DNA of 52,946 bases from Hyphomicrobiales bacterium (GTDB lineage: Bacteria > Pseudomonadota > Alphaproteobacteria > Rhizobiales > Rhizobiaceae), in the NCBI GenBank assembly GCA_011087605.1, contig JAALLE010000017.1, forward strand, positions 1 through 52,946, in the 5' to 3' direction. Position 1 is the first letter of the stretch. The number at the start of each line of letters is the position of its first letter. The notes beneath the pieces are model-generated. The model saw only the letters and a program-made list of their open reading frames with translations. It was not told the DNA's origin and searched no databases. This document shows, piece after piece, positions 1-16,349 of the stretch. Position numbers and translations under genes: made by a program.

Positions 1-222
1 GAATCAAATTGTCGCACCTAATGGCAGCAGAAATAGGGTAGCTGAGTAGTTACTATTCGTGACGGATTATTGCTGAATATTTTGATGCTGCTTTGGCCGC
101 TTGAAGCCGTGAGAAACTGGCAATCGGGCGGGTAACCTTTGGTTTCGAGCGACGATGCCACGATCTTTGCACCTTCTGGCCCCTTGACCCCAATTGATGT
201 TTATGAAGAAATGGAAATTCGT
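1..222. other. Upstream region without a convincing gene
   Basis: No gene with a plausible start and length is visible. One plus-strand frame is open from about 139 to the TAA at 238-240 and reads as a protein-like tail, but the same frame carries stops at 19, 34, 43 and 136. It is at best the remnant of a decayed gene, or chance. The right end of the stretch runs into the operator-like box at 223-241. Confidence 0.4.
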
Positions 223-241
223 TTAGCGATCGATAAATAAG
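223..241 (+). promoter_or_regulatory. Operator box A, proposed TetR site
   Basis: TTAGCGATCGATAAATAAG matches three further boxes at 6221, 9930 and 10014, and shares the exact 12-mer TCGATAAATAAG with the box at 10021-10032. It is also part of a near-perfect palindrome at 222-237 (7 of 8 pairs). It lies about 65 bp upstream of the TRAP receptor gene. Assignment to the TetR protein at 6973-7620 is inference from proximity and from the distribution of the boxes. Confidence 0.55.
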
Positions 242-271
242 CCGAAGAGTTTCGTCGCAACGCGCAGATTT

Positions 272-286
272 ACGCCATCTTGGCGT
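272..286 (+). promoter_or_regulatory. 5'-UTR hairpin before the TRAP receptor gene
   Basis: ACGCCA and TGGCGT form a 6-bp stem with a 3-nt loop, ending about nine bases before the GGGAGGA ribosome-binding site (295-301). It could affect mRNA stability or access to the ribosome-binding site. No functional evidence is available. Confidence 0.35.
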
Positions 287-304
287 TTACAACGGGAGGA
301 ATTC

Positions 305-1387
305 ATGAGTTCAAAAACAATGGGTAAACTTGCGGTATTGGCGCTGTTCGCGTCGACTACCCTTGGTGCCGTATCGACGGCCAGTGCTGATTCATTCACA
401 TTGCGCGCAGGCGCTGGACACCCCAGCGGTCCTGCAGTCTATGTCACTGATCTAGAAAAATATTTTGTACCTGAAGTGAAACGGCGCGTGGCCGCGGAAA
501 CCGACCACACAATCGAGTTTGTCGAAGGTTATGGTGGATCAATCGCCGGTGTCGCAGAGACTTTGGAAGCGGTGCAGAACGGAATTTTGGATATCGGCGC
601 TTATTGCTTCTGCTTTGAGCCGGCGAAGTTGTTTTTGCACAACTTCCCTTATTACGCGCCATTTGGCCCACAGGATTCTGCCCAGCAAATGCAGGCCACA
701 CGCGCCGTATATGACAAAACAGCGTGGCTGACCGACACATTTGAGAAGGAATACAAACAAAAGCTGCTGGGTTTGCACGGATGGGACAATTATCATCTGG
801 GTACAACCGATCCCTGGGACACGGTTGATGATCTCAAGGGCGTCAAGGTTGGTGGTGCCGGACCAAACCTGCCGTGGCTGGAATTCGCCGGTGCCGTACC
901 GGTTCAGTCGACATTGCCGGACGGATATTTGTCGCTCCAGACCGGGGTTTACCATGGATGGTTGATGTTCCCATCAGCCTATCTCGGCTTTAAATTTTAT
1001 GAGCCGGCACCCCATTATACCCAGATCGGGTTCGGTGCCATGGGTGTGAACGGGTTGACCATGAACTTGCGGTCGTTCAACCGATTGCCGCCAGAAATTC
1101 AGAAAATTCTGGTTGAGGTCGGTCGCGGCTATGAGGAACAAGCCGGTAAATCGCTGAATGCGCGCCAGAAGGCCGGCCTGGAAGGGCTGGCAAAAGTCGG
1201 CGCTAAAATGAAGGTATTGCCTGAAGAAGCCCGGGCCGGTTGGGCCAAATCACTCGCAGGCTTTCCAAGCCGTCAGGCAAAAGATGCTGACGGACGTGGC
1301 ATGCCCGGAACGGAGGTCATGAAAAACTATCTCGAGGCGGTGAATGCCACGGGCTACAAGTGGCCGCATCCCTATAGCTTGAACTAA
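305..1387 (+). CDS. TRAP transporter solute-binding protein (DctP family)
   Basis: 360 residues. A Sec signal peptide (about 1-28, cleavage near ASA/DS) precedes a DctP-type periplasmic receptor that would hand a small organic solute to a DctQM permease. A strong GGGAGGA lies 4 bp before the ATG. The second lobe has the usual D-L-K-G-V-K segment (175-181), but the position normally occupied by the carboxylate-binding arginine appears to be Gly183 (K-V-G-G), so the ligand may not be a simple carboxylate. No dctQ or dctM gene follows; a terminator closes the gene at once, so it is an orphan receptor within this window. Operator box A lies upstream and suggests co-regulation with the catabolic genes to 11 kb. 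The family call is firm; the ligand is unknown. Confidence 0.9.
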   Translation: MSSKTMGKLAVLALFASTTLGAVSTASADSFTLRAGAGHPSGPAVYVTDLEKYFVPEVKRRVAAETDHTIEFVEGYGGSIAGVAETLEAVQNGILDIGAYCFCFEPAKLFLHNFPYYAPFGPQDSAQQMQATRAVYDKTAWLTDTFEKEYKQKLLGLHGWDNYHLGTTDPWDTVDDLKGVKVGGAGPNLPWLEFAGAVPVQSTLPDGYLSLQTGVYHGWLMFPSAYLGFKFYEPAPHYTQIGFGAMGVNGLTMNLRSFNRLPPEIQKILVEVGRGYEEQAGKSLNARQKAGLEGLAKVGAKMKVLPEEARAGWAKSLAGFPSRQAKDADGRGMPGTEVMKNYLEAVNATGYKWPHPYSLN

Positions 1388-1419
1388 ACCCTGAGCAACC
1401 TTTCTAATCAGGGCCATTT

Positions 1420-1449
1420 GGGGCGGCCATCGGTCGCCCCTTTTTATTT
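1420..1449 (+). terminator. Rho-independent terminator after the TRAP receptor gene
   Basis: A 9-bp GC-rich stem (1420-1428 with 1432-1440, one G-T pair) with a 3-nt ATC loop is followed by TTTTTATTT. It lies 33 bp after the stop codon and separates the receptor gene from the deacetylase gene. Confidence 0.85.
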
Positions 1450-1556
1450 CGTCAATTATGTCGTGCAATCAGATGGCGGGAGCACATGGGCAAGATTTCT
1501 AGGCTTATAAGTTCGCATTTTGGCCATTGGACCAGATCGCCGTTGGATACCCAGCG

Positions 1557-2438
1557 ATGCGCCTGACTGATCGAATCCCCTTTCAGGCGATTGTTGACCG
1601 CCCAAAACTTCAGTTTCCTGATGGCAAACGAATGGCCGTCTGGGTGATTTTGAATGTTGAGGAATGGCAGATCGAAAAGCCGATGCCGCGCACAGTTCTG
1701 CCGCCGCCAATGGGTCAGCCGCTGCTGCCGGACATTCCCAACTGGTCCTGGCATGAATATGGCATGCGTTCCGGATTCTGGCGGCAACATAAGGCGCTGA
1801 CGGATCGGGATATTCCAACGACGCTGGCGATCAACGGCAATGTTTGCAATTCCTATCCGCGCGTCGCGGCGGCGGGCAAGGAGGCAGGTTGGGAATTCAT
1901 GGGCCACGGCTTCCTGCAAGGGCCGACGCACAAGCTGCAGGATCAATCCGCCGCGATCGCTAAAACGGTGGAATCCCTTTCCAGTTTTAGCGGTGCTGCA
2001 CCGCGTTCCTGGGAATGTCCGGGTCTCACGGAAACCGATGAAACACTGGATCTGTTGCGCCAGCACGGCATTGAATATGTTGCTGACTGGGTAATCGATG
2101 ACCTGCCACAGGATATCGAAACACCTTTCGGCACGATTACCACGACCCCCTATACAGTGGAGACAAACGATATCGCCGTCTATGCGCTCCAACAGCACCG
2201 TTCAGATGAATTGTTACGCCGGGGCATTGATCAGTTTGACCGGCTCTATCAGGAGAGTGAGGATAATGCCCGCATCATGGCGATTTCCATGCATCCCTAC
2301 ATCACGGGCGTACCTCACCGCATCAGGTATCTGGAAGAACTGTTCGACTATGTCGGTGGCCATGAGGGTGTTTGCTGGATGACCGCGAGCCAAATCGGCG
2401 ATTGGTATCGCGCGCAGATGGATGCCTTGAGCGGCTGA
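1557..2438 (+). CDS. Polysaccharide deacetylase family protein, PuuE-like
   Basis: About 293 residues of NodB-fold hydrolase, most like the allantoinase/PuuE branch, which hydrolyses cyclic amides rather than chitin oligomers. Visible blocks are the N-terminal strand W-V-I-L-N-V-E-E-W, the E-F-M-G-H-G motif, W-E-C-P-G-L-T-E-T-D, and a C-terminal I-S-M-H-P-Y segment carrying the late conserved histidine. There is no signal peptide, so it is cytoplasmic, which also speaks against a cell-wall role. I chose the ATG at 1557; a TTG at 1527 would add ten residues, and neither has a clear ribosome-binding site. It converges on the Cox-type operon with only 6 bp between the stops. In this context hydrolysis of a ring amide formed by the molybdenum hydroxylase is plausible but unproven. 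Confidence 0.8.
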   Translation: MRLTDRIPFQAIVDRPKLQFPDGKRMAVWVILNVEEWQIEKPMPRTVLPPPMGQPLLPDIPNWSWHEYGMRSGFWRQHKALTDRDIPTTLAINGNVCNSYPRVAAAGKEAGWEFMGHGFLQGPTHKLQDQSAAIAKTVESLSSFSGAAPRSWECPGLTETDETLDLLRQHGIEYVADWVIDDLPQDIETPFGTITTTPYTVETNDIAVYALQQHRSDELLRRGIDQFDRLYQESEDNARIMAISMHPYITGVPHRIRYLEELFDYVGGHEGVCWMTASQIGDWYRAQMDALSG

Positions 2439-2444
2439 CTGATT

Positions 2445-4823
2445 TTACACTTTGCCCAGCGCTTTGAGTATCCGTTGGGGTGTCATCGGCATTTGATGGA
2501 TGGAAGCATTCAGTGGTCGAAGCGCATCATTGACGGCGTTCATGACTGCGGCGGGCGCGCCACCTGTGCCGGCTTCGCCTGCGCCCTTGGCACCCAGCAC
2601 TGACGTTTTGGTGGGGGTTTCAATATGTGCAATGTGGATATCCGGCATTTCTGCGGCCATCGGTACGAGATAATCGGCCATTGAGGCATTTTGCAACTGG
2701 CCATCCGGCGAATAGATGCATTCTTCGTAAAGTGCACCGCCTATTCCCTGCACAACGCCACCCCTTATTTGCTCATCCACCAATTTGGGATTGATAACCC
2801 GTCCGCAATCTTCAACGGCCCAGAAGTTCAAGACCGTTACGAAGCCGGTCTCGACATCAATTTCAACATGGGCAGCCATCGCGCCATTGGTGAATACGAA
2901 AGGGAAGTCCGTCACTCGATAATGGCGGGTGGCAATCAATTCCGGTGTCACATCAGCGGGAAGTTCATTGCCCCGATAATAGACAATTTTCCCCAAATCA
3001 GCGAGTGAGATCCGCTGCGTGCCAATTTCGATGTCGACTACCTGTCCGTCCACAATGTCCAACTGATCTGAACGGGCCTGCAATATCACGCCCGCAACAT
3101 CCAGCACCTGCTGCTTTAGAGCATGGGAGGCCTGCAACACCGCTTCACCGCCAATGCCTGCACCGCGCGAAGCCCAGGTGCCGCCGCCATAGGGGGTAGT
3201 GGCCGTATCACCCGTTGTCACTTTCACCCGATCAATATCCACTCCGAACACGCCGGCTGCGATCTGGGCAATGATGGTATTGGTGCCCTGTCCCTGTTCG
3301 GTAATTGACGCTGAAACATGCGGCGCCCCCGCCGCATCCAGTCTGACGCTGGCGCCGTCCTGCGCGGAGATCGGTGCCCCGCCAATGCCATAAAACATCG
3401 GACTTGGATTGGTCACCTCGACCATCGATACAAGGCCAATTCCGCGATAGATGTTTTGCTTTTGGGCTGCAGCCTGATCCTCGCGCAGAGCCTCATAATC
3501 CATGAAGCGGACCAATTTCTCTAACGCTTTTTGATGCGATAAATCGTCGAATTTCATCCCGGCGGCAGAGTTTATCGGATAGGCATTATCTGCAAAAAGG
3601 TTGCGCCGACGAATATCAACGACGTCCATGCCAATTTCATGGGCCGCCTCTTCCAGCAACCCGTCAGCAACTGCCATCGCCACTGGATGACCTACGGCTC
3701 GGTATTGGCACATCATGTTTTTGTTCTGGAACACCACCGTTCCCCGAGCGCGGTAGTTTTCAATTGCATAGGGTGCGCCGGTCAGGTTGAGAATTTGATT
3801 GCACTCAATGGCTGATGTGCGCGGATACATGCTGTAGGGACCAATGCCGGTCAGATTATCGATTTCCAGCGCCGCAATTTTTCCCTCTGCATCAACCGCC
3901 AGACGTCCCCGCACGGTGTGATCGCGGGCATGAATGTCTGAAACGAAGCTTTCAGTGCGGTCGGCAATGAACTTAACCGGGCGGGCAAGGATTTTTGCCG
4001 CTGCTGCTGTGGCAACGTCGTCACCATAGGTATGAATTTTTATGCCAAATGATCCGCCTACATCGCGGGCAACGATGTGCACGTTTTCTTCCAGCAACCC
4101 AAGATGTTTGGCCAGTATGGCTTGCATCATATGGGGAGCCTGGCCGGAATAATGGTACGTCAGCACCGCTTCTGAAGGATCATATTCAACCACAGATGCC
4201 CGTGGCTCCAGGGTGACACCCGTATGTCGGCCAAAGATGAATTCCCGCTCGATCACGGTAACATCGTTTCGGGCAAACGCATCGTCGACGTGACCCGCAT
4301 CTACCGTGCGCTGCCATGCCAGATTGCTGTCAAATTCTCCATGGATCACCGGAGCATCGTCTTGAAGGGCAGTCCCGGCATCGCAGACTGTCTCTAACGG
4401 TTCAAAGTCGATATCCACCAGTTCGCAGGCATCTTCGGCAATGGCACGGCTTTGCGCGACAATCATTACCACCGGTTCTCCCTGCCAGCGCGCCCGATCT
4501 GCAGCCAACGGGCTTTGTGGTGGTGAGCGCAAACCCTGCAGATGGGTCAGAACACCGACATAGGGGCTGACGTGATCGGCAAGGTCGTCAGCGGTGAACA
4601 CGGCAATCACGCCGGGCAGGGTGGTTGCTTCCGCCGTGTCGATATTGCCAATCTCGGCGTGGGCATGGGGTGATCGGACAAAAGCTGCATGAAGCATGCG
4701 CGGCAATTGCAGATCGTCAACATATTTGCCGCGTCCCTCTACAAGGCGCCGCGCATCGGGTCGTGGCACAGACTTCCCGATATATGAATTGGGCTTGTCA
4801 AACAGGGTAAGCGGGCCGCTCAT
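2445..4823 (-). CDS. Molybdenum hydroxylase large subunit (CoxL/xanthine dehydrogenase family)
   Basis: 792 residues, binding the molybdopterin cytosine dinucleotide cofactor and carrying the hydroxylation site. Motifs: G-G-S-F-G-I-K near 256-262, an M-M-C-Q-Y-R-A-V-G-H-P loop near 370-380, a G-G-T-W-A-S-R-G-A-G-I-G-G region, and K-G-A-G-E-A-G-T-G-G near the C-terminus with the expected catalytic glutamate. The CO-dehydrogenase loop A-Y-R-C-S-F-R is absent, so it is not form I CO dehydrogenase; hydroxylation of an N-heterocycle, aldehyde or related compound is more likely. The ATG at 4823 is preceded by GGGAGGAAAG and overlaps the TGA of the small-subunit gene by 4 bp (ATGA). An upstream in-frame extension is rejected because it overlaps that gene. 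Third gene of an M-S-L operon. Confidence 0.93.
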   Translation of the reverse strand: MSGPLTLFDKPNSYIGKSVPRPDARRLVEGRGKYVDDLQLPRMLHAAFVRSPHAHAEIGNIDTAEATTLPGVIAVFTADDLADHVSPYVGVLTHLQGLRSPPQSPLAADRARWQGEPVVMIVAQSRAIAEDACELVDIDFEPLETVCDAGTALQDDAPVIHGEFDSNLAWQRTVDAGHVDDAFARNDVTVIEREFIFGRHTGVTLEPRASVVEYDPSEAVLTYHYSGQAPHMMQAILAKHLGLLEENVHIVARDVGGSFGIKIHTYGDDVATAAAAKILARPVKFIADRTESFVSDIHARDHTVRGRLAVDAEGKIAALEIDNLTGIGPYSMYPRTSAIECNQILNLTGAPYAIENYRARGTVVFQNKNMMCQYRAVGHPVAMAVADGLLEEAAHEIGMDVVDIRRRNLFADNAYPINSAAGMKFDDLSHQKALEKLVRFMDYEALREDQAAAQKQNIYRGIGLVSMVEVTNPSPMFYGIGGAPISAQDGASVRLDAAGAPHVSASITEQGQGTNTIIAQIAAGVFGVDIDRVKVTTGDTATTPYGGGTWASRGAGIGGEAVLQASHALKQQVLDVAGVILQARSDQLDIVDGQVVDIEIGTQRISLADLGKIVYYRGNELPADVTPELIATRHYRVTDFPFVFTNGAMAAHVEIDVETGFVTVLNFWAVEDCGRVINPKLVDEQIRGGVVQGIGGALYEECIYSPDGQLQNASMADYLVPMAAEMPDIHIAHIETPTKTSVLGAKGAGEAGTGGAPAAVMNAVNDALRPLNASIHQMPMTPQRILKALGKV

Positions 4824-5299
4824 TGCTTTCCTCCCTGCTCGATGACCGCAACCACTGCATCCACGATCGACTGATAGCCGGTGCAGCGGCAATAATTTCC
4901 AGAGAGATGCTGGCGAATGGCGGCGCGATCAGCTTTGCCCCCGGCCTCGATATATTCCAGCGCACTGGCCAGCATGCCGGGGGTGCAATAGCCGCACTGC
5001 AGGGCGTTGTATTTCTGAAATGAGAGCTGCAATTGAGCTGCTTTTTCCCGATCCGCAAAGCCTTCAATTGTAGTTATCTCCGCACCGTCTGCCTGAACCG
5101 CAAGCATCAAACATCCGCGGATCATTGAGCCGTCAACCTCCAGCGTACAGGCACCGCAAACACCGTGCTCGCAGCCAACATGTGAACCGGTCAATCCCAC
5201 TTGATTGCGCAAAAAATCCACCAAATTGGTGCGCAGGGGGACGGAGGCCGAAATTGGTTCGCCGTTGATTATCACCGATATGTTTTGGCTCTTGGTCAA
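4820..5299 (-). CDS. Molybdenum hydroxylase small subunit, 2x[2Fe-2S] (CoxS-like)
   Basis: 159 residues, the usual length. The N-terminal plant-type ferredoxin domain has C-E-H-G-V-C-G-A-C with a further cysteine at R-G-C-L-M. The C-terminal helical domain has L-Q-C-G-Y-C-T-P-G-M and Y-C-R-C-T-G-Y. All eight ligands for two [2Fe-2S] clusters are therefore present. It carries electrons from the molybdenum centre of the large subunit to the FAD subunit. It overlaps both neighbours by 4-bp ATGA junctions (5296-5299 and 4820-4823), a sign of strict translational coupling and fixed stoichiometry. Confidence 0.95.
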   Translation of the reverse strand: MTKSQNISVIINGEPISASVPLRTNLVDFLRNQVGLTGSHVGCEHGVCGACTLEVDGSMIRGCLMLAVQADGAEITTIEGFADREKAAQLQLSFQKYNALQCGYCTPGMLASALEYIEAGGKADRAAIRQHLSGNYCRCTGYQSIVDAVVAVIEQGGKQ

Positions 5300-6147
5300 C
5301 GCATCATCTCCTCGATCGCCCGCTTGAACACCACTTTGGCTAGATGCCGTTTGGTCGAGACTTCGGCATTCAAATCGCCATGAAAGTCCAGCTTGTCGAT
5401 CTCCTTTCGTGCATTTTCCAGCCCCTCTTCGGTCAATTCAGACAGGCCGTTCAAGTGATTTTCCACCGTTTCTGCACGGATGGCCCGATCACTTATCGCA
5501 AAAAATACCACACGGGCATCGTTTATGGGGTCAGTTCTCTGCGCTGTGACGGCAACGCCGGCCATGGCATAGTCGCCATGGCGGCGTGCCAACTCGTAAA
5601 ATCCGCAGGCTGAACCGGTCGTGGATTTTGGAATGGATATCGATTCAATCAACTCGCCTGAATCCAGCGCGGTTTCATAAAGCCCGAGAAAGAACTTTGA
5701 AGCCTCAGTCGAGCGCTGACCCTCTCGAGAGCGGGTCACTATGGTTGCGTTCAGAGCAATTAAAAGTGCCGGCATTTCGGCAGCTGGATCAGCGAGCGCC
5801 GTACTGCCGCCAATTGTCCCACGGTTTCGAATTGCCGAATGGGCGATATGGGGCAGGGCGATAGATAAGAGCGGCACATGCTGTTGGATCAGCGACGAAG
5901 TTTCTAACTCGCAATAGCGGGTCATTGATCCGATTTGAATATGGCTATCGGTCTGGCGAATAAATTGCAGTTCTTCCAGGCCATTCAAATCGACCAGCAG
6001 TTCCGGTTGCGCCAGTCGGAAATTCATCATCGGCATCAGGCTTTGTCCACCAGCAAGAATCTGCACGTCTGCTGACTCGTTGGCCAGAAGGTCCAATGCG
6101 GCTCCCAAATTCGAGGGTCGCAGATAGTCAAATTCGGCAGCTTTCAT
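5296..6147 (-). CDS. Molybdenum hydroxylase FAD subunit (CoxM-like)
   Basis: 283 residues of a two-domain FAD-binding subunit. The first FAD motif is A-G-G-Q-S-L-M-P-M-M-N-F-R (about 32-44) and the second is T-I-G-G-S-T-A-L-A-D-P-A-A-E-M-P; a CO dehydrogenase C-terminal domain follows. It accepts electrons from the iron-sulphur subunit and passes them to a quinone or another acceptor. GGGAGG stands about 5 bp before the ATG at 6147, and this is the first gene of the operon. The upstream gap carries operator box B, shared with the divergent peroxiredoxin gene. No CoxD/CoxE/CoxF or XdhC-type maturation genes are in the window, so maturation must rely on genes elsewhere. Confidence 0.93.
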   Translation of the reverse strand: MKAAEFDYLRPSNLGAALDLLANESADVQILAGGQSLMPMMNFRLAQPELLVDLNGLEELQFIRQTDSHIQIGSMTRYCELETSSLIQQHVPLLSIALPHIAHSAIRNRGTIGGSTALADPAAEMPALLIALNATIVTRSREGQRSTEASKFFLGLYETALDSGELIESISIPKSTTGSACGFYELARRHGDYAMAGVAVTAQRTDPINDARVVFFAISDRAIRAETVENHLNGLSELTEEGLENARKEIDKLDFHGDLNAEVSTKRHLAKVVFKRAIEEMMR

Positions 6148-6216
6148 GCACGCCTCCCGGTGCTCGACAATGTCATCACTTCCTGGTGAGTATGTTGCCT
6201 GTTTCTCCTATATCCT

Positions 6217-6239
6217 TTATTTATCGGATTATAAATAAG
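6217..6239. promoter_or_regulatory. Operator box B, inverted repeat TTATTTAT-N6-ATAAATAA
   Basis: A perfect 8-bp inverted repeat (6217-6224 and 6231-6238, 6-nt spacer) lies between the divergent molybdenum hydroxylase operon (ATG 6147) and the peroxiredoxin gene (ATG 6433). Bases 6221-6239 read TTATCGGATTATAAATAAG and align with boxes A, C and D; the 10-mer CGATAAATAA occurs on the minus strand at 6217-6226. Symmetry and size suit a TetR dimer. Confidence 0.6.
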
Positions 6240-6432
6240 CCGAAGGCCAGAATTGGAATTTTTTGCCGCTTTGCTCAGTATCCAGACCTGAATCAGGGTA
6301 GGAGAAGAGGACCAATCAACATCATCATCAGGTCTTGCCGATTGCCATGATAACTTGTGGTATCGGGGCCACAATAATTGAAATCTCGACCGCGCGACCG
6401 CTTTGACCGGCGCCAAACTAAGGAAACTAACT

Positions 6433-6951
6433 ATGTCAGTCATGCTCACTCCCAACGCACAGGTGCCCGCGCTTAGTGTTCAAACAGTCGCTGGTGATAG
6501 CTGGGACTTGTCCACCCAATCGCCGGAAAATTTTACCATGGTGGTTTTTTACCGGGGCCTGCACTGCCCGGTTTGCAAGTCATATCTGCAGAAGCTTTTG
6601 ACCATGTTGGCAGCTTATGAAGACGCCGGGTTTTCGACCATTGCCATTTCGATGAACAATGAGGACCTCGCCAAACAGACCGCCAGCGAATGGCAACTGG
6701 ACGGTCTGACGGTCGGGTACGGTCTGTCAGAATCAGATGCCCGCGCCTGGGGACTTTATATTTCAAAAGCGATCAAGGATGCTGAAGCAGACACATTTTG
6801 TGAGCCGGGTCTGTTTTGGGTCCGCCCGGACGGTCGTCTTTATCTGGTTGATGTTTCCAATATGCCATGGGCGCGCCCGGACCTTGAATTCCTACTGTCA
6901 AAGGTGCCATTCGCGGTCGAGAATAACTATCCGTCGCGCGGCGGCGCATAG
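6433..6951 (+). CDS. Peroxiredoxin-like protein (AhpC/TSA fold)
   Basis: 172 residues from the ATG at 6433, which has AAGGAA about 8 bp upstream; an in-frame TTG at 6403 is less likely. It has a thioredoxin fold with Y-R-G-L-H-C-P-V-C-K at 40-49, giving a C-x-x-C pair (C45, C48), and an AhpC/TSA-type C-terminal half (F-W-V-R-P-D-G-R-L-Y). Proteins like this are annotated as peroxiredoxin-like thiol reductases. There is no signal peptide. It is divergent from the molybdenum hydroxylase operon across box B and converges on tetR. A role in removing peroxide made by the flavin and molybdenum enzymes is inference. Confidence 0.82.
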   Translation: MSVMLTPNAQVPALSVQTVAGDSWDLSTQSPENFTMVVFYRGLHCPVCKSYLQKLLTMLAAYEDAGFSTIAISMNNEDLAKQTASEWQLDGLTVGYGLSESDARAWGLYISKAIKDAEADTFCEPGLFWVRPDGRLYLVDVSNMPWARPDLEFLLSKVPFAVENNYPSRGGA

Positions 6952-6968
6952 GCTCCAATTTAAGGTCT

Positions 6969-6999
6969 GCGGTCAGTTCTTCGAGGTGGAACTGACCGC
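6969..6999. terminator. Bidirectional stem-loop between the convergent prx and tetR genes
   Basis: An 11-bp perfect stem, GCGGTCAGTTC (6969-6979) with its complement (6989-6999), encloses a 9-nt loop. It overlaps the last codons of the TetR gene (stop at 6973-6975). There is no strong T-run on either side, so it may stabilise 3' ends rather than terminate by itself. Confidence 0.6.
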
Positions 7000-7620
7000 C
7001 CCAATTCCCGCCAGGAAGACGTCAAGTGCGTCCGAAATCATGCGAGATTTATCGTCGAGCACCGGCGACTCATAGATGTGCTTGCGAATGCCATAATAAA
7101 AAATTCCGCCATGCATCACCCAGGCAAGCTCCAGTTCTTCCGGTGTTGCCTGTCGGTCGGAAATGTCGCCATTTTCGAACCGATGCTCGGTCAGAATGCG
7201 GTTGAGGATCCGTTCGTTGACCAAACCGACATACCACCGGTTGATTTCAACACCTTTGAGGCCGGAGAACAAAAATATGCGCATCCATTCTCGGGCGAAA
7301 ATTGCGTCCGTATAGGCTTCATAAAATGTCTGCAATCGTTCTCGTAACGGTCGGTTTCGGTCACACAGCAATTCGTCCCATTCTTCACGCCAACGGTTTA
7401 GATAGACAGTTTGATAGACCTCTTTGATGAGGTCATTCTTGCTTGGAAAATATCGATACAGCAGCGGTTGAGTCACACCCAGATGTCTGGCCAGGTCGCG
7501 GGTACTGCTTTCAAATCCCTCTTCGGCAAAAAATTCGATTGCCTTGGTAATGAATTCCGCCCGCCTTTCAGTTGATGAAAGACGTTTTTTTCGAGGCTTG
7601 ACCTGGACTGTTTCACTCAT
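6973..7620 (-). CDS. TetR/AcrR family transcriptional regulator
   Basis: 215 residues. The N-terminal TetR helix-turn-helix covers about residues 17-63 (R-D-L-A-R-H-L-G-V-T-Q-P-L-L-Y-R-Y-F-P-S-K-N-D-L). A helical ligand domain without recognisable signatures follows. It is the last gene of the minus-strand operon monooxygenase, flavin reductase, OsmC, tetR, 33 bp after the OsmC stop. Box D lies in front of that operon, so negative autoregulation is likely. Three related boxes (A, B, C) precede the other catabolic units between 0 and 11 kb. I infer that this protein binds them all and is released by the pathway substrate or an intermediate. Confidence 0.93.
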   Translation of the reverse strand: MSETVQVKPRKKRLSSTERRAEFITKAIEFFAEEGFESSTRDLARHLGVTQPLLYRYFPSKNDLIKEVYQTVYLNRWREEWDELLCDRNRPLRERLQTFYEAYTDAIFAREWMRIFLFSGLKGVEINRWYVGLVNERILNRILTEHRFENGDISDRQATPEELELAWVMHGGIFYYGIRKHIYESPVLDDKSRMISDALDVFLAGIGAVSSTSKN

Positions 7621-7653
7621 GCGCGATTCCCTATTCGGCAGACTGCAACACTT

Positions 7654-8142
7654 TCAGGCATCTTGCCACTCGCCGCCCAACTTTAGCCTGTGGTCAACAA
7701 TCAGACCCTGAGCCAGAGTTTGCTCAATAAAGCACCCCTTTTTGGCGCATTCCAGCAAATGTTTCAGTTGCTCACCGGAGGCGTCGGAATCAATGTCGAC
7801 GTCCAGTCCAAACCCAACCGGTGACGTCACATAGGGTTCCATTCCCTGTTGTTCACCCTGCCAATGCAGTCGCGCTTTAACCTCAACATGATTGATCTTG
7901 ATTTTCAGGCGTTTGGCGAATGCCCGGATCTGGGTCATCAAACAACCGGTCAAAGCAGCGGTAAACAGAGCAAGTGGCGGCGGTGCCGTGCCGTCTCCGC
8001 CGTGAAACGGACCTTCATCCGTGGCCAGTTCAAATTTCTCCTTCATCATCGGCCATTCAACCGAGATATCGTTGCGCATATTGGGACCGGTCGTGCCAAC
8101 CCCTTCAAATATGACGTCGAAACGTTTCTTTTCATCGCTCAT
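7654..8142 (-). CDS. OsmC family protein
   Basis: 162 residues from the ATG at 8142. The OsmC/Ohr fold has both catalytic cysteines: C67 in A-A-L-T-G-C-L-M-T and C137 in A-K-K-G-C-F-I-E-Q. Such proteins reduce organic hydroperoxides with dithiols. The start is 4 bp after the stop of the flavin reductase gene; an upstream in-frame start at 8178 would overlap that gene more. Its place in an operon with a flavin monooxygenase suggests defence against hydroperoxide by-products or handling of a thiol-reactive intermediate. Confidence 0.88.
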   Translation of the reverse strand: MSDEKKRFDVIFEGVGTTGPNMRNDISVEWPMMKEKFELATDEGPFHGGDGTAPPPLALFTAALTGCLMTQIRAFAKRLKIKINHVEVKARLHWQGEQQGMEPYVTSPVGFGLDVDIDSDASGEQLKHLLECAKKGCFIEQTLAQGLIVDHRLKLGGEWQDA

Positions 8143-8146
8143 GACT

Positions 8147-8686
8147 TCAGGTATTTTCCTCTTGCGGTTTGATATCACCGAACTTTCCCCGGTGAAAAAT
8201 CAATGGTGCCCCTTCACCAAGTTCGAATTTCTCAACCGCTCCCAGGAAAATAATATGATCGCCGCCGGCATGACGATAGGCATTTCGGCACTGAAAATTT
8301 GCCAGGCAGTCGGCCAGGACGGGGGCTCCCCCTACACCCTCTATCACCTGCACTCCTTCAAACTTGTCGTCGCGCGATTGAGAAAAACGGATGGCAAGAT
8401 CTTCCTGATCGCGCCTGAGAACGTGGATTGAGTAATGTGAGCAATTTTGAAAAATTGGCATGCTGGGTGCATGGGAGGCCAGGCTCCAAGACACCAGTGC
8501 CGGATTGAGCGACACAGATGAGAATGAATTGGCGGTCAAACCAATGCGCAGGCCGTTGTCGCCCGCAGCCGTTATGATTGTCACACCGGTTGCAAAACTA
8601 CCCAGCGCGTCGCGCAGCAATCGCGGGTCAATTTCCGGGGGCGACTTTTCAGCAGGATCATTTTTGGTGGAGGCCAGGTCGCTCAT
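8147..8686 (-). CDS. Flavin reductase (DIM6/NTAB, HpaC-like)
   Basis: 179 residues. The core reads L-R-D-A-L-G-S-F-A-T-G-V-T-I-I-T-A, then G-L-T-A-N-S-F-S-S-V-S-L-N-P, the FMN/FAD-binding signature of short-chain flavin reductases. These use NAD(P)H to supply reduced flavin to a partner oxygenase. The partner is almost certainly the acyl-CoA-dehydrogenase-fold protein encoded 13 bp upstream (8700-9914). The N-terminal extension of about 20 polar residues is probably disordered. Length and motif order are normal for the family. Confidence 0.92.
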   Translation of the reverse strand: MSDLASTKNDPAEKSPPEIDPRLLRDALGSFATGVTIITAAGDNGLRIGLTANSFSSVSLNPALVSWSLASHAPSMPIFQNCSHYSIHVLRRDQEDLAIRFSQSRDDKFEGVQVIEGVGGAPVLADCLANFQCRNAYRHAGGDHIIFLGAVEKFELGEGAPLIFHRGKFGDIKPQEENT

Positions 8687-8699
8687 TTATTATTGTGCC

Positions 8700-9914
8700 C
8701 TAAAGTGTCGGATTCTCGGATGGCAGGCCGAGTTCGACCCGTCCGTTGTTGGAGCCCGCCGCGTCAAAATTAAAGGCGATATGAGCATTTATGGCGTGTG
8801 CTTCCCGGAATTGACGCTGTAAATGCCCTGACGAGAATAATCCACCTGCACCACTTGCGGCGAACAGAAGGTCGACTGCCTCAGTGCACAGTCTGACCGA
8901 AAATGCACCATCACGACGATATCTGGTTTTGCTCAGCAGGTCGGGAATCTGCGAGGCACGAGCATGTTCCATTGCTTCAATGCAGATGGAACGCATGATT
9001 TGCCGGGCAGCATCAATTTTTGCACCGGCCTCGGCAATCTTAATCTGAGTGGATTGGAAATCTGACAACCGGGCCCGATTATAGTTCGATGTGCGCTGTC
9101 GGGTGTTTGCTATGAAATCGTCGAGGCATGCTTGAGCATTGCCGACGGCACAACCCGACAACACAAATGGAAACAGTGCAAATACCGGCACGCGATAAAG
9201 CGCACCGGGATTGAGGTCAGATCCCGGAGTCTCCCCCCCGGAAACGTCGCTGACGGCCAGAGTCATGTCCTGTGGCACAAAAACGTCGTCCACTTCGACA
9301 TCTTTAGATCCTGTTCCTTTCAGCCCCGTGGTGAACCAGGTGTCGATGATGGAATAGTCGCTTTTCGGCAGCAAAAATATCCGTTGTTCTGCGGCCTGCG
9401 TGTCATCGTCCGGCTGAACCATGCCAGCCAACATATTCCAAGTGGAAGAATCCACTCCCGACGAAAATGGCCAGCGACCATTTAGTTTGTATCCTCCATC
9501 GACCCGTTGGGCGCGGCCGGTGGGAAAGATGAAAGATGAGGCAATCAATGCATCGGCGTCGGTGCTCCAGACGGCATCTTGTGCTGCCGGAGGAAACATC
9601 GCCAGCATCCAGTGATGGCTACTCAGATTGGTGACATTCCAGGCGACTGACGCATCGGCCTTGGCGAGTTCTTCTGCCACATCAATCAGCGCCACATAAT
9701 CCAGTTCAGCACCACCGACTCGCTGCGGTTGCATCATCCGGAAGAGACCTGAATCATGCAGTTCGGTCTCTGTTTCGTCTGGCAGGCTCCGCAATTCCTC
9801 GGTTTCATTGGCCCGCTGTTTTAGTTTCGGGGCCAGTTCGCGAGCCCTGTTCACATAGTCATCCAGCGAACCTTCATCAAAGGCATCACGCAATTGAATG
9901 ACGGAGTCGGTCAT
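8700..9914 (-). CDS. Acyl-CoA-dehydrogenase-fold flavin monooxygenase, oxygenase component
   Basis: 404 residues with the N-terminal helical, central beta and C-terminal helical layout of the acyl-CoA dehydrogenase superfamily. Segments such as R-V-G-G-A-E-L-D-Y-V-A-L, W-P-F-S-S-G-V-D-S-S-T-W and T-G-L-K-G-T-G-S-K-D-V match group D monooxygenases (HsaA, 4-hydroxyphenylacetate hydroxylase C2, DszC) better than true acyl-CoA dehydrogenases. The adjacent flavin reductase supports a two-component hydroxylase using reduced flavin and O2. It heads a four-gene operon ending in tetR. The sequence at 9930-9948 just before it is operator box D. The substrate is not known; an aromatic or heteroaromatic product of the molybdenum hydroxylase is a reasonable guess. 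Confidence 0.88.
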   Translation of the reverse strand: MTDSVIQLRDAFDEGSLDDYVNRARELAPKLKQRANETEELRSLPDETETELHDSGLFRMMQPQRVGGAELDYVALIDVAEELAKADASVAWNVTNLSSHHWMLAMFPPAAQDAVWSTDADALIASSFIFPTGRAQRVDGGYKLNGRWPFSSGVDSSTWNMLAGMVQPDDDTQAAEQRIFLLPKSDYSIIDTWFTTGLKGTGSKDVEVDDVFVPQDMTLAVSDVSGGETPGSDLNPGALYRVPVFALFPFVLSGCAVGNAQACLDDFIANTRQRTSNYNRARLSDFQSTQIKIAEAGAKIDAARQIMRSICIEAMEHARASQIPDLLSKTRYRRDGAFSVRLCTEAVDLLFAASGAGGLFSSGHLQRQFREAHAINAHIAFNFDAAGSNNGRVELGLPSENPTL

Positions 9915-9929
9915 GGCCAGCCTTTCTAG

Positions 9930-9948
9930 TTATCGTTTGATAAATATC
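9930..9948. promoter_or_regulatory. Operator box D before the monooxygenase operon
   Basis: TTATCGTTTGATAAATATC contains the inverted repeat TTATC-N4-GATAA and aligns with boxes A, B and C. It starts 16 bp upstream of the monooxygenase ATG (9914), where a repressor would block transcription or early elongation of the operon that includes tetR. Confidence 0.55.
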
Positions 9949-10001
9949 GCAGCGTGCCCATGACCGCAAGTCAATCCCATTTTCGATAACAATTGACACC
10001 A

Positions 10002-10039
10002 GCAGTTTCTTATTTTTCAATCGATAAATAAGAAACTGC
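10002..10039. promoter_or_regulatory. Operator box C, 14-bp perfect inverted repeat
   Basis: GCAGTTTCTTATTT (10002-10015) and its exact complement (10026-10039) flank a 10-nt spacer. Bases 10014-10032 read TTTTCAATCGATAAATAAG, matching boxes A, B and D. It lies 40 bp upstream of the cyclase gene at 10079 and about 90 bp from the divergent monooxygenase operon. Such extended symmetry without a T-run suits a dimeric repressor site rather than a terminator. Confidence 0.65.
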
Positions 10040-10078
10040 GATCGAAGAACTCATTTCAAAACATACGGATGGCTGACC

Positions 10079-11032
10079 ATGACTTTGACACGGGAAAAAA
10101 TATATCAAACCGCAAAGAAGCTTTCCAATTGGGGGCGTTGGGGCAAAGACGACCAGATTGGCACCCTCAACAATATTGAGCCGGCAGATATCGTCGCTGC
10201 GGCCGGGTTGATCAAAAAAGGCAAGGTATTCGCACTTGGCCTGTCTTTGAAAGAGCCAATCCAGTCGGGCTTGTTTGGCGGGCGCTGGAACCCGGTTCAT
10301 CAAATGCTGGCAACCGGGACCGATGCTGCGATCGGCAAGCAGGACGGTGATGGCAAGGCTTATCTGCGCTATGCCGATGACGGTATTAACATGCCATGCC
10401 AGGCCTCCACCCAGTGGGACGCTTTGGCGCATATTTTTCTCGATGACAAAATGTACAATGGTTATGAAGCGACAGAAGTAACTGTTCAGGGGGCTGCGAA
10501 ACTCGGCATTGAAAATGTCCGCGACAAGATGGTCGGGCGAGGCGTCCTGTTGGATATTGCTCGCCACAGGGGCGTCGCATCACTCGATGATGGCTATGCG
10601 ATTACCAATGACGATCTCAACGCCTGCGCCCGCGATCAGGGGGTGGAGATCAAGAAAGGCGATTTTGTCATTGTGCGCACTGGTCACCAGGAGCGGTGTC
10701 TGGAAAAGGGTGACTGGTCCGGATATGCCGGCGGAGATGCACCGGGACTGGCGTTTGAGACGGCTCACTGGTTGAAGGAAGCCGACATTGCAGCCATCTG
10801 CGCTGATACCTGGGGGTGCGAAGTCCGTCCCAATGAGACCGAGGAGGCCAACCAACCCTGGCACTGGGTTGTCATTCCCGCCATCGGAATTTCCATGGGC
10901 GAAATCTTCTACGTCAAGGAACTGGCTGAAGATTGCGCCGAAGACGGGGTTTACGAGTTTTTCTTTGTCGCACCACCACTGCACCTGCCGGGCGGTGCTG
11001 GTTCACCGATCAATCCGCAGGCGATTAAGTGA
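10079..11032 (+). CDS. Cyclase family protein (kynurenine-formamidase-like hydrolase), long subfamily
   Basis: 317 residues. The cyclase/KynB fold is recognisable from D-D-Q-I-G-T-L-N-N-I (24-33), D-M-V-type metal-region segments and G-D-F-V-I-V-R-T-G. The canonical H-x-G-T-H-x-D-x-P-x-H metal motif is altered to Q-A-S-T-Q-W-D-A-L-A-H (108-118): the first two histidines are glutamines, while the Asp and last His remain. I recall T-Q-W-D variants within the long subfamily, so this may be a normal subfamily trait with a different metal site. Members hydrolyse amides, formamides or cyclic compounds. It is monocistronic behind box C and converges on the MBL gene with a 1-bp gap. A ring-opening or deformylation step is inferred. 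Confidence 0.85.
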   Translation: MTLTREKIYQTAKKLSNWGRWGKDDQIGTLNNIEPADIVAAAGLIKKGKVFALGLSLKEPIQSGLFGGRWNPVHQMLATGTDAAIGKQDGDGKAYLRYADDGINMPCQASTQWDALAHIFLDDKMYNGYEATEVTVQGAAKLGIENVRDKMVGRGVLLDIARHRGVASLDDGYAITNDDLNACARDQGVEIKKGDFVIVRTGHQERCLEKGDWSGYAGGDAPGLAFETAHWLKEADIAAICADTWGCEVRPNETEEANQPWHWVVIPAIGISMGEIFYVKELAEDCAEDGVYEFFFVAPPLHLPGGAGSPINPQAIK

Positions 11033-11033
11033 T

Positions 11034-11921
11034 TTACGCCAGCTGAAACTGATAGGACGCCGGGATAAAATCAAAGCCCTGTTGCCTGGAATTCACAAAG
11101 CCAATTGACGGGAACGGAATGTGATATCCGACCACCGGCAGAGATTCCTCTGCCGCCATGTCGAGAATGCGTTGGCGTGTCGCCGCCGCCGCCTGCGGGT
11201 CATCATCCATGGAAAAATGCCATTCCGGATTGGCGAAAGATGCCACGAAGTGTGGTGTTGTGTCATTTAGCAACAACAATTCTTTGCCGCCCGACGACAG
11301 TTTAAACACCAAATGGCCTGCCGAGTGGCCAAAGGCATTGATCGCGACCAGGCCGGATGCAATCTCATCGCCCGGTTCGATCAGCCGCAATTGATCCTCC
11401 AGCGGCAGCAAAGTTTTTTGAAACAGCGCCAGTGTTGGCTGGCGCATTTCGGAGATATTTTCACCCCGTTTCCAGAATTCAAATTCGGTGCGGCCAATGA
11501 CAATTTCAGCATTGGGGAATGTCGCCACACCGTCAGCCGCAACATTTCCAATATGGTCGGGGTGGCAATGGCTGATCAACACCATATCGACGTCGTCTTT
11601 GGAATAACCGGCCTTTTCCAGTCCGTTCATAAACCAACCAGTTGACGGGGCAGGGGCCGCCGCGCCAAAGCCCGGATCCACAACGATAAGTTTTTCGGGT
11701 GTCTTGATAACCGTGGCAACAAAATTGTGTTCCATGGCAGGGAACGGCAGATGATGAGCGCGCGCAAGTTCTTCAACCTCCGCCGCAGTCGCATTTGTGG
11801 CAATGAAAGGGTGCATGTCGTTGCGATGGAAATAGCCTTCCAAAATGTTTGTTATGACCGCTTCGCCTAAGGCAAATTGATAGACCGTTGGGCGGACCAG
11901 ACCTTTATCTTTGCTACTCAT
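11034..11921 (-). CDS. MBL-fold metallo-hydrolase
   Basis: 295 residues from the ATG at 11921, which has AAGGAG 9 bp upstream; a longer frame reaching 12152 would overlap the preceding gene and is rejected. The metallo-beta-lactamase signature S-H-C-H-P-D-H-I-G-N is at 117-126, with V-D-P-G-F-G before it and later G-H-S-A-G-H-L. Two zinc sites are therefore likely. There is no signal peptide. It is the last gene of the long minus-strand array headed by the cyclase at 20604 and lies 46 bp after the BKACE gene. A lactonase or thioester/ester hydrolase role in the pathway is possible, but the substrate cannot be read from sequence. Confidence 0.88.
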   Translation of the reverse strand: MSSKDKGLVRPTVYQFALGEAVITNILEGYFHRNDMHPFIATNATAAEVEELARAHHLPFPAMEHNFVATVIKTPEKLIVVDPGFGAAAPAPSTGWFMNGLEKAGYSKDDVDMVLISHCHPDHIGNVAADGVATFPNAEIVIGRTEFEFWKRGENISEMRQPTLALFQKTLLPLEDQLRLIEPGDEIASGLVAINAFGHSAGHLVFKLSSGGKELLLLNDTTPHFVASFANPEWHFSMDDDPQAAAATRQRILDMAAEESLPVVGYHIPFPSIGFVNSRQQGFDFIPASYQFQLA

Positions 11922-11967
11922 TTTCCCATTCTCCTTGTCCGACTGTGCACCATGTGGATTTGTTTGA

Positions 11968-12903
11968 TCAGAAATTAACCCGGTCGCCACCCTTGAGACC
12001 AAGAATGTCCCGCGCCTCATCCGGTGTGGCAACCTGGCTGCCCAGATCTTCCACGATGCGCTTGATCTTTGCCACTTGTTGGGCATTGCTCTCTGCCAGT
12101 TTGCCGCGTGAAATGAACAGACTGTCTTCCAGGCCGACACGGACGTGACCACCCATCTGACTGGCAGTTGTGGCCAGCGGCATTTGCGCGGCTCCGGCGC
12201 CGAGGACAGACCAGCGATAATCGTCCCCGAACAAACGGTCAGCCGTTCGTTTCATGAAAACAAGATTGTCGACTTCCGGCCCGATACCACCGAGGATTCC
12301 CATCACGAATTGCAAAAAGATCGGAGCCTTGAACAGGCCGATATCCATGCAGAAACGCAGATTGTAAAGATGGCCTACATCATAGCATTCATGCTCGAAC
12401 TTGATGTCGTGGGGGGCGAGGTTCTCAGCAACAACACCGATATCGCGAAAGGTATTCCGGAATATATAGGAGTCTGAATTCTCTATATATTCCTTCTCCC
12501 AGTCGAATTTCCATGTGTCATAGCGCTTAGCCAGCGGATGGAATGAAAAGTTCATCGAGCCCATATTGAGTGAGCACATTTCTGGCGAATATTTAAGCGC
12601 CGGTGCGATGCGATCCTCGATCGAGGTTTTCATCGAGCCACCCGTCGATATGTTCACCACGGACGTGGTGGCCTGCTTGATACGTGGCAAAAACGCACCG
12701 AAGTCGTTGGGATCGATTGAGATGCTGCCGTCTTGGGGGTTTCGTGCATGCAGATGCAGGATTGAAGCCCCAGCCTCTGCAGCCGCTATCGCCTGACCGG
12801 CAATATCATCCCCCGTATAGGGCAGGGCGTCCGACATGGTCGGAGTGTGAATTGCCCCGGTGACTGCACAGGTGACGATGGTCTTCTTTTGCGGTTTAGC
12901 CAT
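11968..12903 (-). CDS. Beta-keto acid cleavage enzyme (BKACE, DUF849/Kce family)
   Basis: 311 residues from the ATG at 12903, preceded by AAGGAA; the longer frame to 12933 has no better signal. It is a TIM barrel with the zinc motif H-L-H-A-R (50-54), the conserved glutamate region K-F-E-H-E-C-Y-D and G-G-H-V-R-V-G-L-E-D near the end. BKACE enzymes condense a beta-keto acid with acetyl-CoA, giving acetoacetyl-CoA plus a shorter product (3-keto-5-aminohexanoate in lysine fermentation, dehydrocarnitine in carnitine catabolism). Here a 3-hydroxyacid-type dehydrogenase gene lies upstream in the same array, so dehydrogenation of a 3-hydroxy acid followed by BKACE cleavage is a coherent inference. 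It overlaps the permease gene by 8 bp. Confidence 0.92.
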   Translation of the reverse strand: MAKPQKKTIVTCAVTGAIHTPTMSDALPYTGDDIAGQAIAAAEAGASILHLHARNPQDGSISIDPNDFGAFLPRIKQATTSVVNISTGGSMKTSIEDRIAPALKYSPEMCSLNMGSMNFSFHPLAKRYDTWKFDWEKEYIENSDSYIFRNTFRDIGVVAENLAPHDIKFEHECYDVGHLYNLRFCMDIGLFKAPIFLQFVMGILGGIGPEVDNLVFMKRTADRLFGDDYRWSVLGAGAAQMPLATTASQMGGHVRVGLEDSLFISRGKLAESNAQQVAKIKRIVEDLGSQVATPDEARDILGLKGGDRVNF

Positions 12904-13933: not shown

Positions 13934-13937
13934 CACA

Positions 13938-14801: not shown

Positions 14802-14806
14802 CTGCG

Positions 14807-16250: not shown

Positions 16251-16313
16251 GAGGTCAGCAATACCGATTATTTTAGGTCAGCGGCGGGCCGCACGAAACA
16301 GAAAGAGGGGAGA

Positions 16314-16339
16314 CTGGCGAGGCACAACCACCTCGCCAG
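16314..16339 (-). promoter_or_regulatory. Intra-operon stem-loop after the Liv-type receptor gene
   Basis: A 9-bp perfect stem (CTGGCGAGG with CCTCGCCAG) and an 8-nt loop start 11 bp after the receptor stop. No T-run follows on the minus strand, so it is more likely an RNA-stabilising or partially attenuating element that raises receptor mRNA relative to the downstream transporter genes. Confidence 0.6.
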
Positions 16340-16349
16340 ACAGATTTGA

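What the first reader, a model, noticed from the sequence alone, without database searches (positions are those of the whole stretch)
223..10039. Four matching 19-bp boxes tie the first 11 kb into one proposed TetR regulon
TTAGCGATCGATAAATAAG (223-241), TTATCGGATTATAAATAAG (6221-6239), TTATCGTTTGATAAATATC (9930-9948) and TTTTCAATCGATAAATAAG (10014-10032) align without gaps. Each lies in a promoter gap of a separate catabolic unit: TRAP receptor, molybdenum hydroxylase/peroxiredoxin, monooxygenase-reductase-OsmC-tetR, and cyclase. The 10-mer CGATAAATAA occurs at three of the four, against roughly 0.1 expected by chance in a window this long. A tetR gene lies inside the set. The pathway would be switched on as a unit.
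Basis: partly seen in the sequence, partly recalled or inferred. Interest (0 to 1): 0.75.

Follow-up and report, generated by a model that had tools for sequence, protein, structure and literature searches.

The report
Four-operator TetR regulon for ring catabolism
Four short mirror-image DNA sites in front of neighbouring breakdown genes look like docking sites for one local repressor protein, so that an uptake-and-ring-breaking pathway can be switched on together; the kind of switch is ordinary, but this particular one, kept in many marine and plant-associated bacteria, appears not to have been described.

Summary
The four boxes are real and far beyond chance. Each is part of a 22-24 bp inverted repeat (consensus CTTATTTATCGATCGATAAATAAG), the expected operator shape for a TetR dimer. 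A matrix from these four sites finds 55 sites in 19 of 20 loci with the TetR orthologue, against 0.08 for permuted matrices, upstream of the same genes: cyclase, monooxygenase/OsmC, molybdenum hydroxylase, TRAP transporter. Sites are conserved, flanks are not. In 13 of 24 cyclase promoters a TTGAC element puts the -10 inside the dyad, suggesting repression. Half-site base 6 (T or G) covaries with the TetR recognition helix, tying box to protein. Best reading: a local, autoregulated TetR repressor regulon covering 305-11032; inducer and substrate unknown. Against: three of nine order genomes with a similar TetR lack a close dyad. The phloroglucinol-type operon next door has no box. New member of a known kind. 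No binding or expression was tested.

The parts
218..241 (+). Dyad 1 (operator), upstream of the TRAP receptor and PuuE-like hydrolase; TTCGTTTAGCGATCGATAAATAAG
   Evidence: conserved in dctP upstream regions of 8 of 14 start-anchored loci
305..1387 (+). TRAP transporter receptor (DctP family)
   Evidence: NF037995 62.1 bits (cut-off 50), PF03480 61.8 (cut-off 23.4)
1527..2438 (+). PuuE/polysaccharide-deacetylase-like hydrolase (start codon uncertain)
   Evidence: PF01522 32 bits (cut-off 23.1); TIGR03212 116 bits, below its cut-off 424.6
2445..4892 (-). Molybdenum hydroxylase large subunit (true start probably near 4823)
   Evidence: PF20256, PF02738, PF01315; no equivalog cut-off met
4820..5299 (-). 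Molybdenum hydroxylase 2Fe-2S subunit
   Evidence: ORF; 48% identical to an annotated (2Fe-2S)-binding protein in L088; not scanned against HMM libraries
5296..6147 (-). Molybdenum hydroxylase FAD subunit
   Evidence: PF00941 173 bits, PF03450 45.6
6216..6239 (+). Dyad 2 (operator), between the Mo-hydroxylase operon and the peroxiredoxin; TTTATTTATCGGATTATAAATAAG
   Evidence: conserved upstream of moxM in 26 of 36 start-anchored loci
6433..6951 (+). Peroxiredoxin-like protein (AhpC-TSA)
   Evidence: PF00578 46.6 bits
6973..7620 (-). TetR-family regulator, proposed binder of the four dyads
   Evidence: PF00440 51.1 bits (cut-off 24); all-helical model, pLDDT 86
7654..8178 (-). OsmC-related protein
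   Evidence: NF041052 118.9 bits (cut-off 95)
8147..8686 (-). Flavin reductase
   Evidence: PF01613 126.8 bits
8700..9914 (-). Acyl-CoA-dehydrogenase-fold flavin monooxygenase (HsaA/HpaH-like)
   Evidence: NF045629 331.4 bits, below cut-off 450; best solved relative 2rfq, 1e-67
9925..9948 (+). Dyad 3 (operator), 11 nt from the start of the monooxygenase-reductase-OsmC-tetR operon; TCTAGTTATCGTTTGATAAATATC
9993..9998 (+). TTGACA, proposed -35 of the cyclase promoter; a 17-nt spacer puts the -10 at about 10016-10021, inside dyad 4
   Evidence: TTGAC at the same place (16-18 nt before the dyad) in 13 of 24 distinct promoters
10009..10032 (+). Dyad 4 (operator) over the cyclase promoter; CTTATTTTTCAATCGATAAATAAG
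   Evidence: conserved in 24 of 30 start-anchored cyclase upstream regions
10079..11032 (+). Cyclase-family (PF04199) hydrolase
   Evidence: PF04199 86.8 bits (cut-off 23.1); 83-97% identical in most named relatives where mapped

Best explanation
The boxes are operators of the TetR protein encoded at 6973-7620. A TetR dimer binds the 22-24 bp dyad cTTATTTATCgatcGATAAATAAg at four promoters and blocks RNA polymerase (at the cyclase promoter the dyad covers the likely -10). This silences TRAP uptake, the molybdenum hydroxylase and peroxiredoxin, the two-component monooxygenase-OsmC-tetR operon (so tetR controls itself) and the cyclase-family hydrolase. A small molecule, probably the imported compound or an early intermediate, is expected to release TetR and switch on about eleven genes together. 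The likely route is uptake, ring hydroxylation by the Mo enzyme and the flavin monooxygenase, then ring opening by the cyclase. Shown by computation: the dyads, their exclusiveness in the genome, their conservation at the same promoters, their covariation with the TetR helix. Inferred: binding, repression, the inducer and the chemistry.
For: Exactly 4 dyads in 4.19 Mb, all here, 0.71 expected, reversed control 0. Dyad symmetry 33 of 48 pairs, 0 of 200,000 draws. 55 sites in 19 of 20 orthologous loci against 0.08 for permuted matrices. 0 of 72 sites inside a mapped gene, same target genes. Site 1.41-1.67 bits per column against 0.19-0.68 in the flanks. TTGAC 16-18 nt before the dyad in 13 of 24 cyclase promoters. 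Half-site base 6 is T on at least one side in 35 of 35 dyads beside QP..YRYF TetRs and G on both sides in 11 of 11 beside other helices. No other TetR of the genome resembles this one at E <= 1e-20.
Against: No binding or expression data. Genomes G376, G387 and G211 keep a TetR of 52-65% identity but have no dyad within 2 mismatches; the best scores near those tetR genes are 13.5, 14.8 and 18.3. G167's only close dyad is about 100 kb from tetR, with weaker ones (19.2, 15.2) near the gene. In pRL8 the coxMSL and ABC genes, which share the induction, have no box. Promoter hexamers are not enriched by the generic scan, and 7 of 24 cyclase promoters show no TTGAC at either spacing.
Confidence: 0.82

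Rival explanations
1. The dyads are sites of this TetR, but it acts as an activator or as a dual regulator, as the vibrio LuxR/HapR proteins do, rather than as a plain inducer-released repressor.
For: Best solved sequence relatives are OpaR/HapR-type proteins, and LuxR both activates and represses (passages of PMC2628434). At dctP and dctQ many relatives have two sites.
Against: At the cyclase promoter the dyad covers the likely -10 in 13 of 24 sequences, and dyad 3 lies 11 nt from the start codon: both are repressor positions. The arrangement (autoregulated, local targets) is typical of inducer-released TetR proteins (general knowledge; stated in PMC2628434 passages).
Confidence: 0.1
2. The dyads are bound by another regulator, for example the IclR at 20800-21561 or one of the other TetR proteins of the genome, and tetR is only a passenger.
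For: The genome has 12 TetR_N matches and an IclR lies 10 kb away. A few genomes have good dyads without a similar TetR in the 2-3 kb fetched (G342, G174, G301).
Against: No dyad at the IclR unit (next best window score 11.8). The dyad follows this TetR across families and its base 6 changes with the TetR helix. In several relatives the best dyad lies within about 200 nt of tetR.
Confidence: 0.06
3. The boxes are AT-rich promoter elements or chance similarities, not operators.
For: They are AT-rich and lie at promoters; dyad 3 is weak.
Against: Dyad symmetry, permuted-matrix control, whole-genome exclusiveness and footprint. A separate TTGAC element is conserved outside the dyad in cyclase promoters.
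Confidence: 0.02

Closest known systems
TetR/AcrR-family local catabolic repressors (general kind)
   Same: TetR_N domain above cut-off, all-helical TetR fold, dyad operators at its own operon and neighbouring catabolic promoters.
   Different: Ligand unknown; four separate promoters over 10 kb rather than one divergent gap; no NCBIfam equivalog cut-off met.
Vibrio LuxR/HapR/SmcR/OpaR master regulators and their operator
   Same: Best solved sequence relatives (1.6e-10, 1.4e-8). Operator of the same length and outer half-sites: TATTGATAAA-TTTATCAATA (PMC3323551 passage) against TATTTATCGA-TCGATAAATA here.
   Different: 23.5 bits against a cut-off of 350 for that family. Recognition helix YRYF instead of FNYF, T instead of G in the half-site. 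Catabolic, local setting instead of global quorum sensing.
pRL8 pea-rhizosphere gene block of Rhizobium johnstonii (leguminosarum) 3841
   Same: TetR orthologue (59%) divergent from the same cyclase (80%), with dyads before the cyclase and before the XdhC/CoxI gene. The cyclase gene pRL80036 is induced six- to ten-fold in pea rhizosphere (PMC3333776 section 10; matching of pRL80036 to RL_RS25345 is by order and annotation).
   Different: Different Mo hydroxylase and an ABC importer, which have no box there; no TRAP receptor, OsmC or monooxygenase of this type mapped in the loci.

Membership tests
TetR/AcrR transcriptional regulators | TetR_N helix-turn-helix domain | tested here: met
   PF00440 51.1 bits, cut-off 24
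TetR/AcrR transcriptional regulators | All-helical fold with N-terminal HTH and C-terminal ligand/dimer domain | tested here: met
TetR/AcrR transcriptional regulators | Dyad operators at its own and neighbouring promoters | tested here: met
   Four dyads, one in front of the operon that holds tetR
TetR/AcrR transcriptional regulators | DNA binding released by a ligand | not testable with these tools
   Needs purified protein and ligand
LuxR/HapR/OpaR quorum-sensing regulators | Family model score (NF040929, cut-off 350 bits) | tested here: not met
   23.5 bits
LuxR/HapR/OpaR quorum-sensing regulators | 20-22 bp dyad operator with TATTGAT half-sites | tested here: not met
   Same length and outer bases, but T instead of G at half-site base 6 in the window
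AcuR acrylate regulator | Family model score (NF051457, cut-off 247 bits) | tested here: not met
   36.8 bits
HsaA / HpaH two-component monooxygenases (the hydroxylase in the regulon) | Curated equivalog scores (NF045629 cut-off 450; NF045920 cut-off 650) | tested here: not met
   331.4 and 252.4 bits: same class, substrate unknown

The most novel reading that the evidence does not exclude
A widespread proteobacterial TetR subfamily uses a HapR/LuxR-shaped 22-bp operator in which one base of each half-site (T or G) is set by the recognition helix: QP..YRYF reads TTATTTAT, while QS/QA..FNYF, FRYF or YQYF reads TTATTGAT or a close variant, as the vibrio FNYF proteins do. Around this portable TetR-operator module, unrelated hydroxylases (two-component HpaH type, single-component FAD type) have been exchanged within one regulon for an unknown plant- or algae-derived ring compound.
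Probability: 0.5. Interest if true: 0.6.

Novelty: new member of a known kind. Interest (0 to 1): 0.45.

Why it matters
It turns four look-alike boxes into a testable, conserved regulon. It says which genes belong to one apparently undescribed catabolic pathway and gives a reporter (any of the four promoters with TetR) for finding the substrate. It offers a regulator for part of a gene block known to be induced in the pea rhizosphere. The one-base operator change that follows the recognition helix offers a simple rule for predicting targets of many TetR proteins.

Tried and rejected
Chance: rejected by genome, shuffle, permuted-matrix and cross-species tests. Extension of the regulon to the rest of the window: the next best window position scores 11.8 against 25.9 for the weakest box, so the 11.0-21.6 kb unit is not included. 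Generic promoter prediction gave nothing above chance (6 found, 8.2 expected); only the aligned cyclase promoters were informative, and the moxM promoters gave no consistent -35 (the commonest offset, -7, in 8 of 24). Explaining the whole pRL8 pea-induced block by the box failed: coxMSL and the ABC genes have none. Pathway identity: homarine, isatin and kynurenine readings were considered; searches on homarine operons and on isatin hydrolase with TetR and molybdopterin terms listed no matching cluster by title and abstract, and the one solved relative of the cyclase at E <= 0.001 is an uncharacterized protein (5ibz). Ligand by fold: the best VIA match is PhlH with diacetylphloroglucinol, tied with others (15.7, 15.5, 15.4), so no ligand is inferred. 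The statement that the regulon is not in print rests, in an open-access library only; I saw capped listings and opened four papers from them (passages of PMC2628434, PMC3323551, PMC12977469; passages and section 10 of PMC3333776) besides passages of PMC10470551. One search found 51 papers with one of the strings; the 15 listed looked unrelated by title and abstract, the other 36 were not seen.

Rows left out of counts: L057 (29% partial TetR match) from the 20 named loci; L001-L006 (the window itself). Named loci are mostly metagenome bins. The 25 of 397 genomes with the reversed control pattern were counted by eye from the table (only counted my typed list).
Full report
WHAT WAS CLAIMED.

THE OBSERVATION. 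All four boxes are at the stated coordinates. CGATAAATAA occurs three times exactly in the window, at 231-240 (+), 6217-6226 (-) and 10022-10031 (+); shuffles give a mean of 0.02 and 0 of 100 reach three. With one mismatch allowed there are 5 matches against 1.99 expected, 9 of 100 shuffles reaching 5, so the short word alone would be weak evidence if loosened. The 24-mers are TTCGTTTAGCGA-TCGATAAATAAG (218-241), TTTATTTATCGG-ATTATAAATAAG (6216-6239), TCTAGTTATCGT-TTGATAAATATC (9925-9948) and CTTATTTTTCAA-TCGATAAATAAG (10009-10032); consensus CTTATTTATCGATCGATAAATAAG. The arms pair at 8, 8, 7 and 10 of 12 positions, 33 of 48 in all; 0 of 200,000 draws of AT-matched window positions reach this.

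GENOME-WIDE TEST. The window is contig 74 of a 4.19 Mb, 177-contig genome. TTATTTATCNNNNGATAAATAA with up to 3 mismatches occurs at exactly 4 places, the four boxes, with 0 for the reversed pattern. The window's base composition predicts 0.71. CGATAAATAAG occurs twice, both here. Leave-one-out, each box ranks 1 of 52,782 window positions; the best other position scores 11.8 against 25.9 for the weakest box.

THE GENES. Box 1 precedes a TRAP receptor (305) and a PuuE-like hydrolase. Box 2 lies between a three-subunit molybdenum hydroxylase (minus strand) and a peroxiredoxin (plus). Box 3 precedes monooxygenase-flavin reductase-OsmC-tetR (minus). Box 4 precedes a PF04199 cyclase-family hydrolase. 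The dyads lie 64, 69, 11 and 47 nt from the nearest start codons. No equivalog cut-off is met by the monooxygenase, the two Mo-hydroxylase subunits scanned, or TetR, so the substrates are unknown.

PHYLOGENETIC FOOTPRINT. TetR orthologues were found in 20 usable named loci (L037-L056; L057, a 29% partial match, was left out). A matrix from the window's four sites alone finds 55 sites in 19 of 20 loci at score 21.85 or more (29 sites in 15 loci at the window's own minimum), against a permuted-matrix mean of 0.08 and maximum 2 in 60 permutations. L056 (TetR 44%) has none. In order genomes, ten loci with TetR about 48% identical or more (L095-L104) have 13 sites in 6 loci; ten loci with TetR 42-48% identical (L105-L114) have 0. 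Over the 44 loci, 72 sites score 21.9 or more and 0 lie inside a gene mapped by the 28 query proteins (other genes were not mapped). They stand upstream of cyc1 (10-68 nt in most), moxM (51-83 nt in most), dctP and dctQ, and the hpaH or osmC operon. The hpaH-type monooxygenase itself is mapped in 6 of the 20 named loci only (L037-L042). In five loci (L047, L053, L054, L055, L100) a dyad stands 2-35 nt before an unrelated single-component FAD monooxygenase; in the first four no hpaH was mapped. So a different hydroxylase appears to have been recruited into the same regulon. Aligned on the dyad, information is 1.41 bits per column in the site against 0.34 and 0.26 in the flanks for moxM (26 of 36 start-anchored loci with a usable site of up to 5 mismatches), 1.47 against 0.19 and 0.20 for cyc1 (24 of 30), and 1.67 against 0.68 and 0.66 for dctP (8 of 14).

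LINK TO THE TETR. Among 397 genomes of the order, the dyad (up to 2 mismatches) occurs in 6 of 9 with a TetR at least 50% identical and in 30 of 388 others (Fisher p 2.5e-5). The reversed control occurs in 25 of 397 (my count of the table), so most of the 30 look like background. One of the six (G167) has its site about 100 kb from tetR. None of the 20 other genomes of the window's family has the TetR at E <= 1e-20; 3 of these 20 have a dyad, two of them genomes of only 1.5-1.6 Mb. The stronger evidence is covariation. Near each TetR the best site was chosen with half-site base 6 masked. Of 41 distinct TetRs with helix QP..YRYF, 35 have a dyad of up to 3 mismatches; 35 of 35 carry T on at least one side and 28 on both. 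Of 21 with other helices, 11 have such a dyad and 11 of 11 carry G on both sides (FNYF 8 of 8; YQYF 7 of 7 carry G but only 1 passes 3 mismatches; FRYF 3 of 4 carry G, 2 within 3 mismatches; YRHF 0 of 2 have a dyad). FRYF keeps Arg56 and YQYF keeps Tyr55 yet both carry G, so Pro52 (against Ser/Ala) is the best single correlate. These are few clades, not independent events, so the Fisher value (7e-11) must not be taken at face value, and a match of 3 mismatches can arise by chance in some loci.

LUXR/HAPR CONNECTION. The best solved sequence relatives are OpaR- and HapR-type proteins (1.6e-10 and 1.4e-8); they also rank second and fifth in Foldseek, among many TetR proteins. The box of the vibrio regulators is the 20-bp dyad TATTGATAAA-TTTATCAATA (passage of PMC3323551); LuxR binds a 21-bp dyad and G5T is among its most harmful changes (passages of PMC2628434). 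SmcR Asn55, called important for recognizing DNA (passage of PMC12977469), aligns with Arg56 here. The vibrio proteins have FNYF and G in the operator, agreeing with the rule. This TetR is not a member of that subfamily (23.5 bits, cut-off 350).

MECHANISM. In 13 of 24 distinct cyclase promoters, the window included, TTGAC(A/T/G) lies 16-18 nt before the dyad; in four rhizobial or Ancylobacter plasmid promoters it lies 23 nt before; 7 show neither. With a 17-nt spacer the -10 falls inside or at the edge of the dyad, so a bound dimer should block the promoter. The generic scan found no excess of promoters, so the other three promoters are unproven. Box 3 precedes the operon that ends in tetR, implying autorepression. 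Dyads 3 and 4 start 84 bp apart, about eight helical turns; whether this matters is unknown. The genome has 12 TetR_N matches, but none other resembles this TetR at E <= 1e-20, so cross-talk is unlikely.

RELATION TO A KNOWN EXPRESSION STUDY. On plasmid pRL8 of R. johnstonii 3841 the TetR orthologue (59%) is divergent from the same cyclase (80%), with dyads before the cyclase (2 mismatches), before the XdhC gene (3) and between tetR and moaA (4). Another 99.9 kb of the plasmid has none at score 21.85; bases 8,000-145,900 of 147,463 were scanned. The cyclase gene (pRL80036, matched to RL_RS25345 by order and annotation) is induced six- to ten-fold in pea rhizosphere, and coxMSL and an ABC importer are induced too (PMC3333776, section 10 read). 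The last two have no box of up to 5 mismatches, so the TetR explains at most part of that block.

AGAINST. G376 and G387 keep the TetR (61-66%) beside hpaH, flavin reductase and mox genes, but the best scores there are 13.5 and 14.8; L097 and L098 have 19.2 and 18.3. No assay of any kind was done.

VERDICT. It is a new member of a known kind, with a conserved, apparently undescribed regulon (searches; open-access library only) and a possible operator-specificity rule.

Noticed in passing
window 11034-21561: A minus-strand unit with the gene set of the reductive phloroglucinol pathway: a 3,5-dioxohexanoate (triacetate) cleavage enzyme (NF053538, 526.6 bits, cut-off 430), ABC importer genes, a 3-hydroxyacyl-CoA-dehydrogenase-like protein, an SDR and a second cyclase (PF04199), with a divergent IclR. 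The set matches the Clostridium scatologenes cluster (PMC10470551 passages). The SDR's best solved relative is 5g4k, which I recall to be phloroglucinol reductase. No TetR box.
   Followed up: partly
L047 6877, L053 14558, L054 5242, L055 6549, L100 12945: A single-component FAD monooxygenase (PRK07236/PF22607 type) has its own dyad 2-35 nt upstream, as if it replaced the HpaH-type enzyme in the same regulon.
   Followed up: partly
L105, L106, L108, L109, L113, L115, L118: TetR homologues of 42-48% identity stand divergent from a Mo-hydroxylase operon with TRAP genes, with a TTATTGATC..GATCAATAA-like dyad in or near the gap: an apparent sister regulon.
   Followed up: partly
L039, L040, L041, L044, L046, L052, L054, L055 upstream of dctP/dctQ: Two dyads in the dctP-dctQ gap, 73-79 bp apart in L044, L046, L052, L054 and L055 and 91-141 bp apart in the others (the weaker member has up to 4 mismatches).
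   Followed up: no
window 139-240: By eye: a short reading frame (TTG start) whose stop codon lies inside dyad 1; no test of whether it is a gene remnant.
   Followed up: no
G342:C39:27169-27190, G174:C13:53492-53513, G301:C35:158850-158871: Dyads with 0, 1 and 2 mismatches in three genomes of one family with no helix of this TetR type in the 2-3 kb fetched around them.
   Followed up: partly
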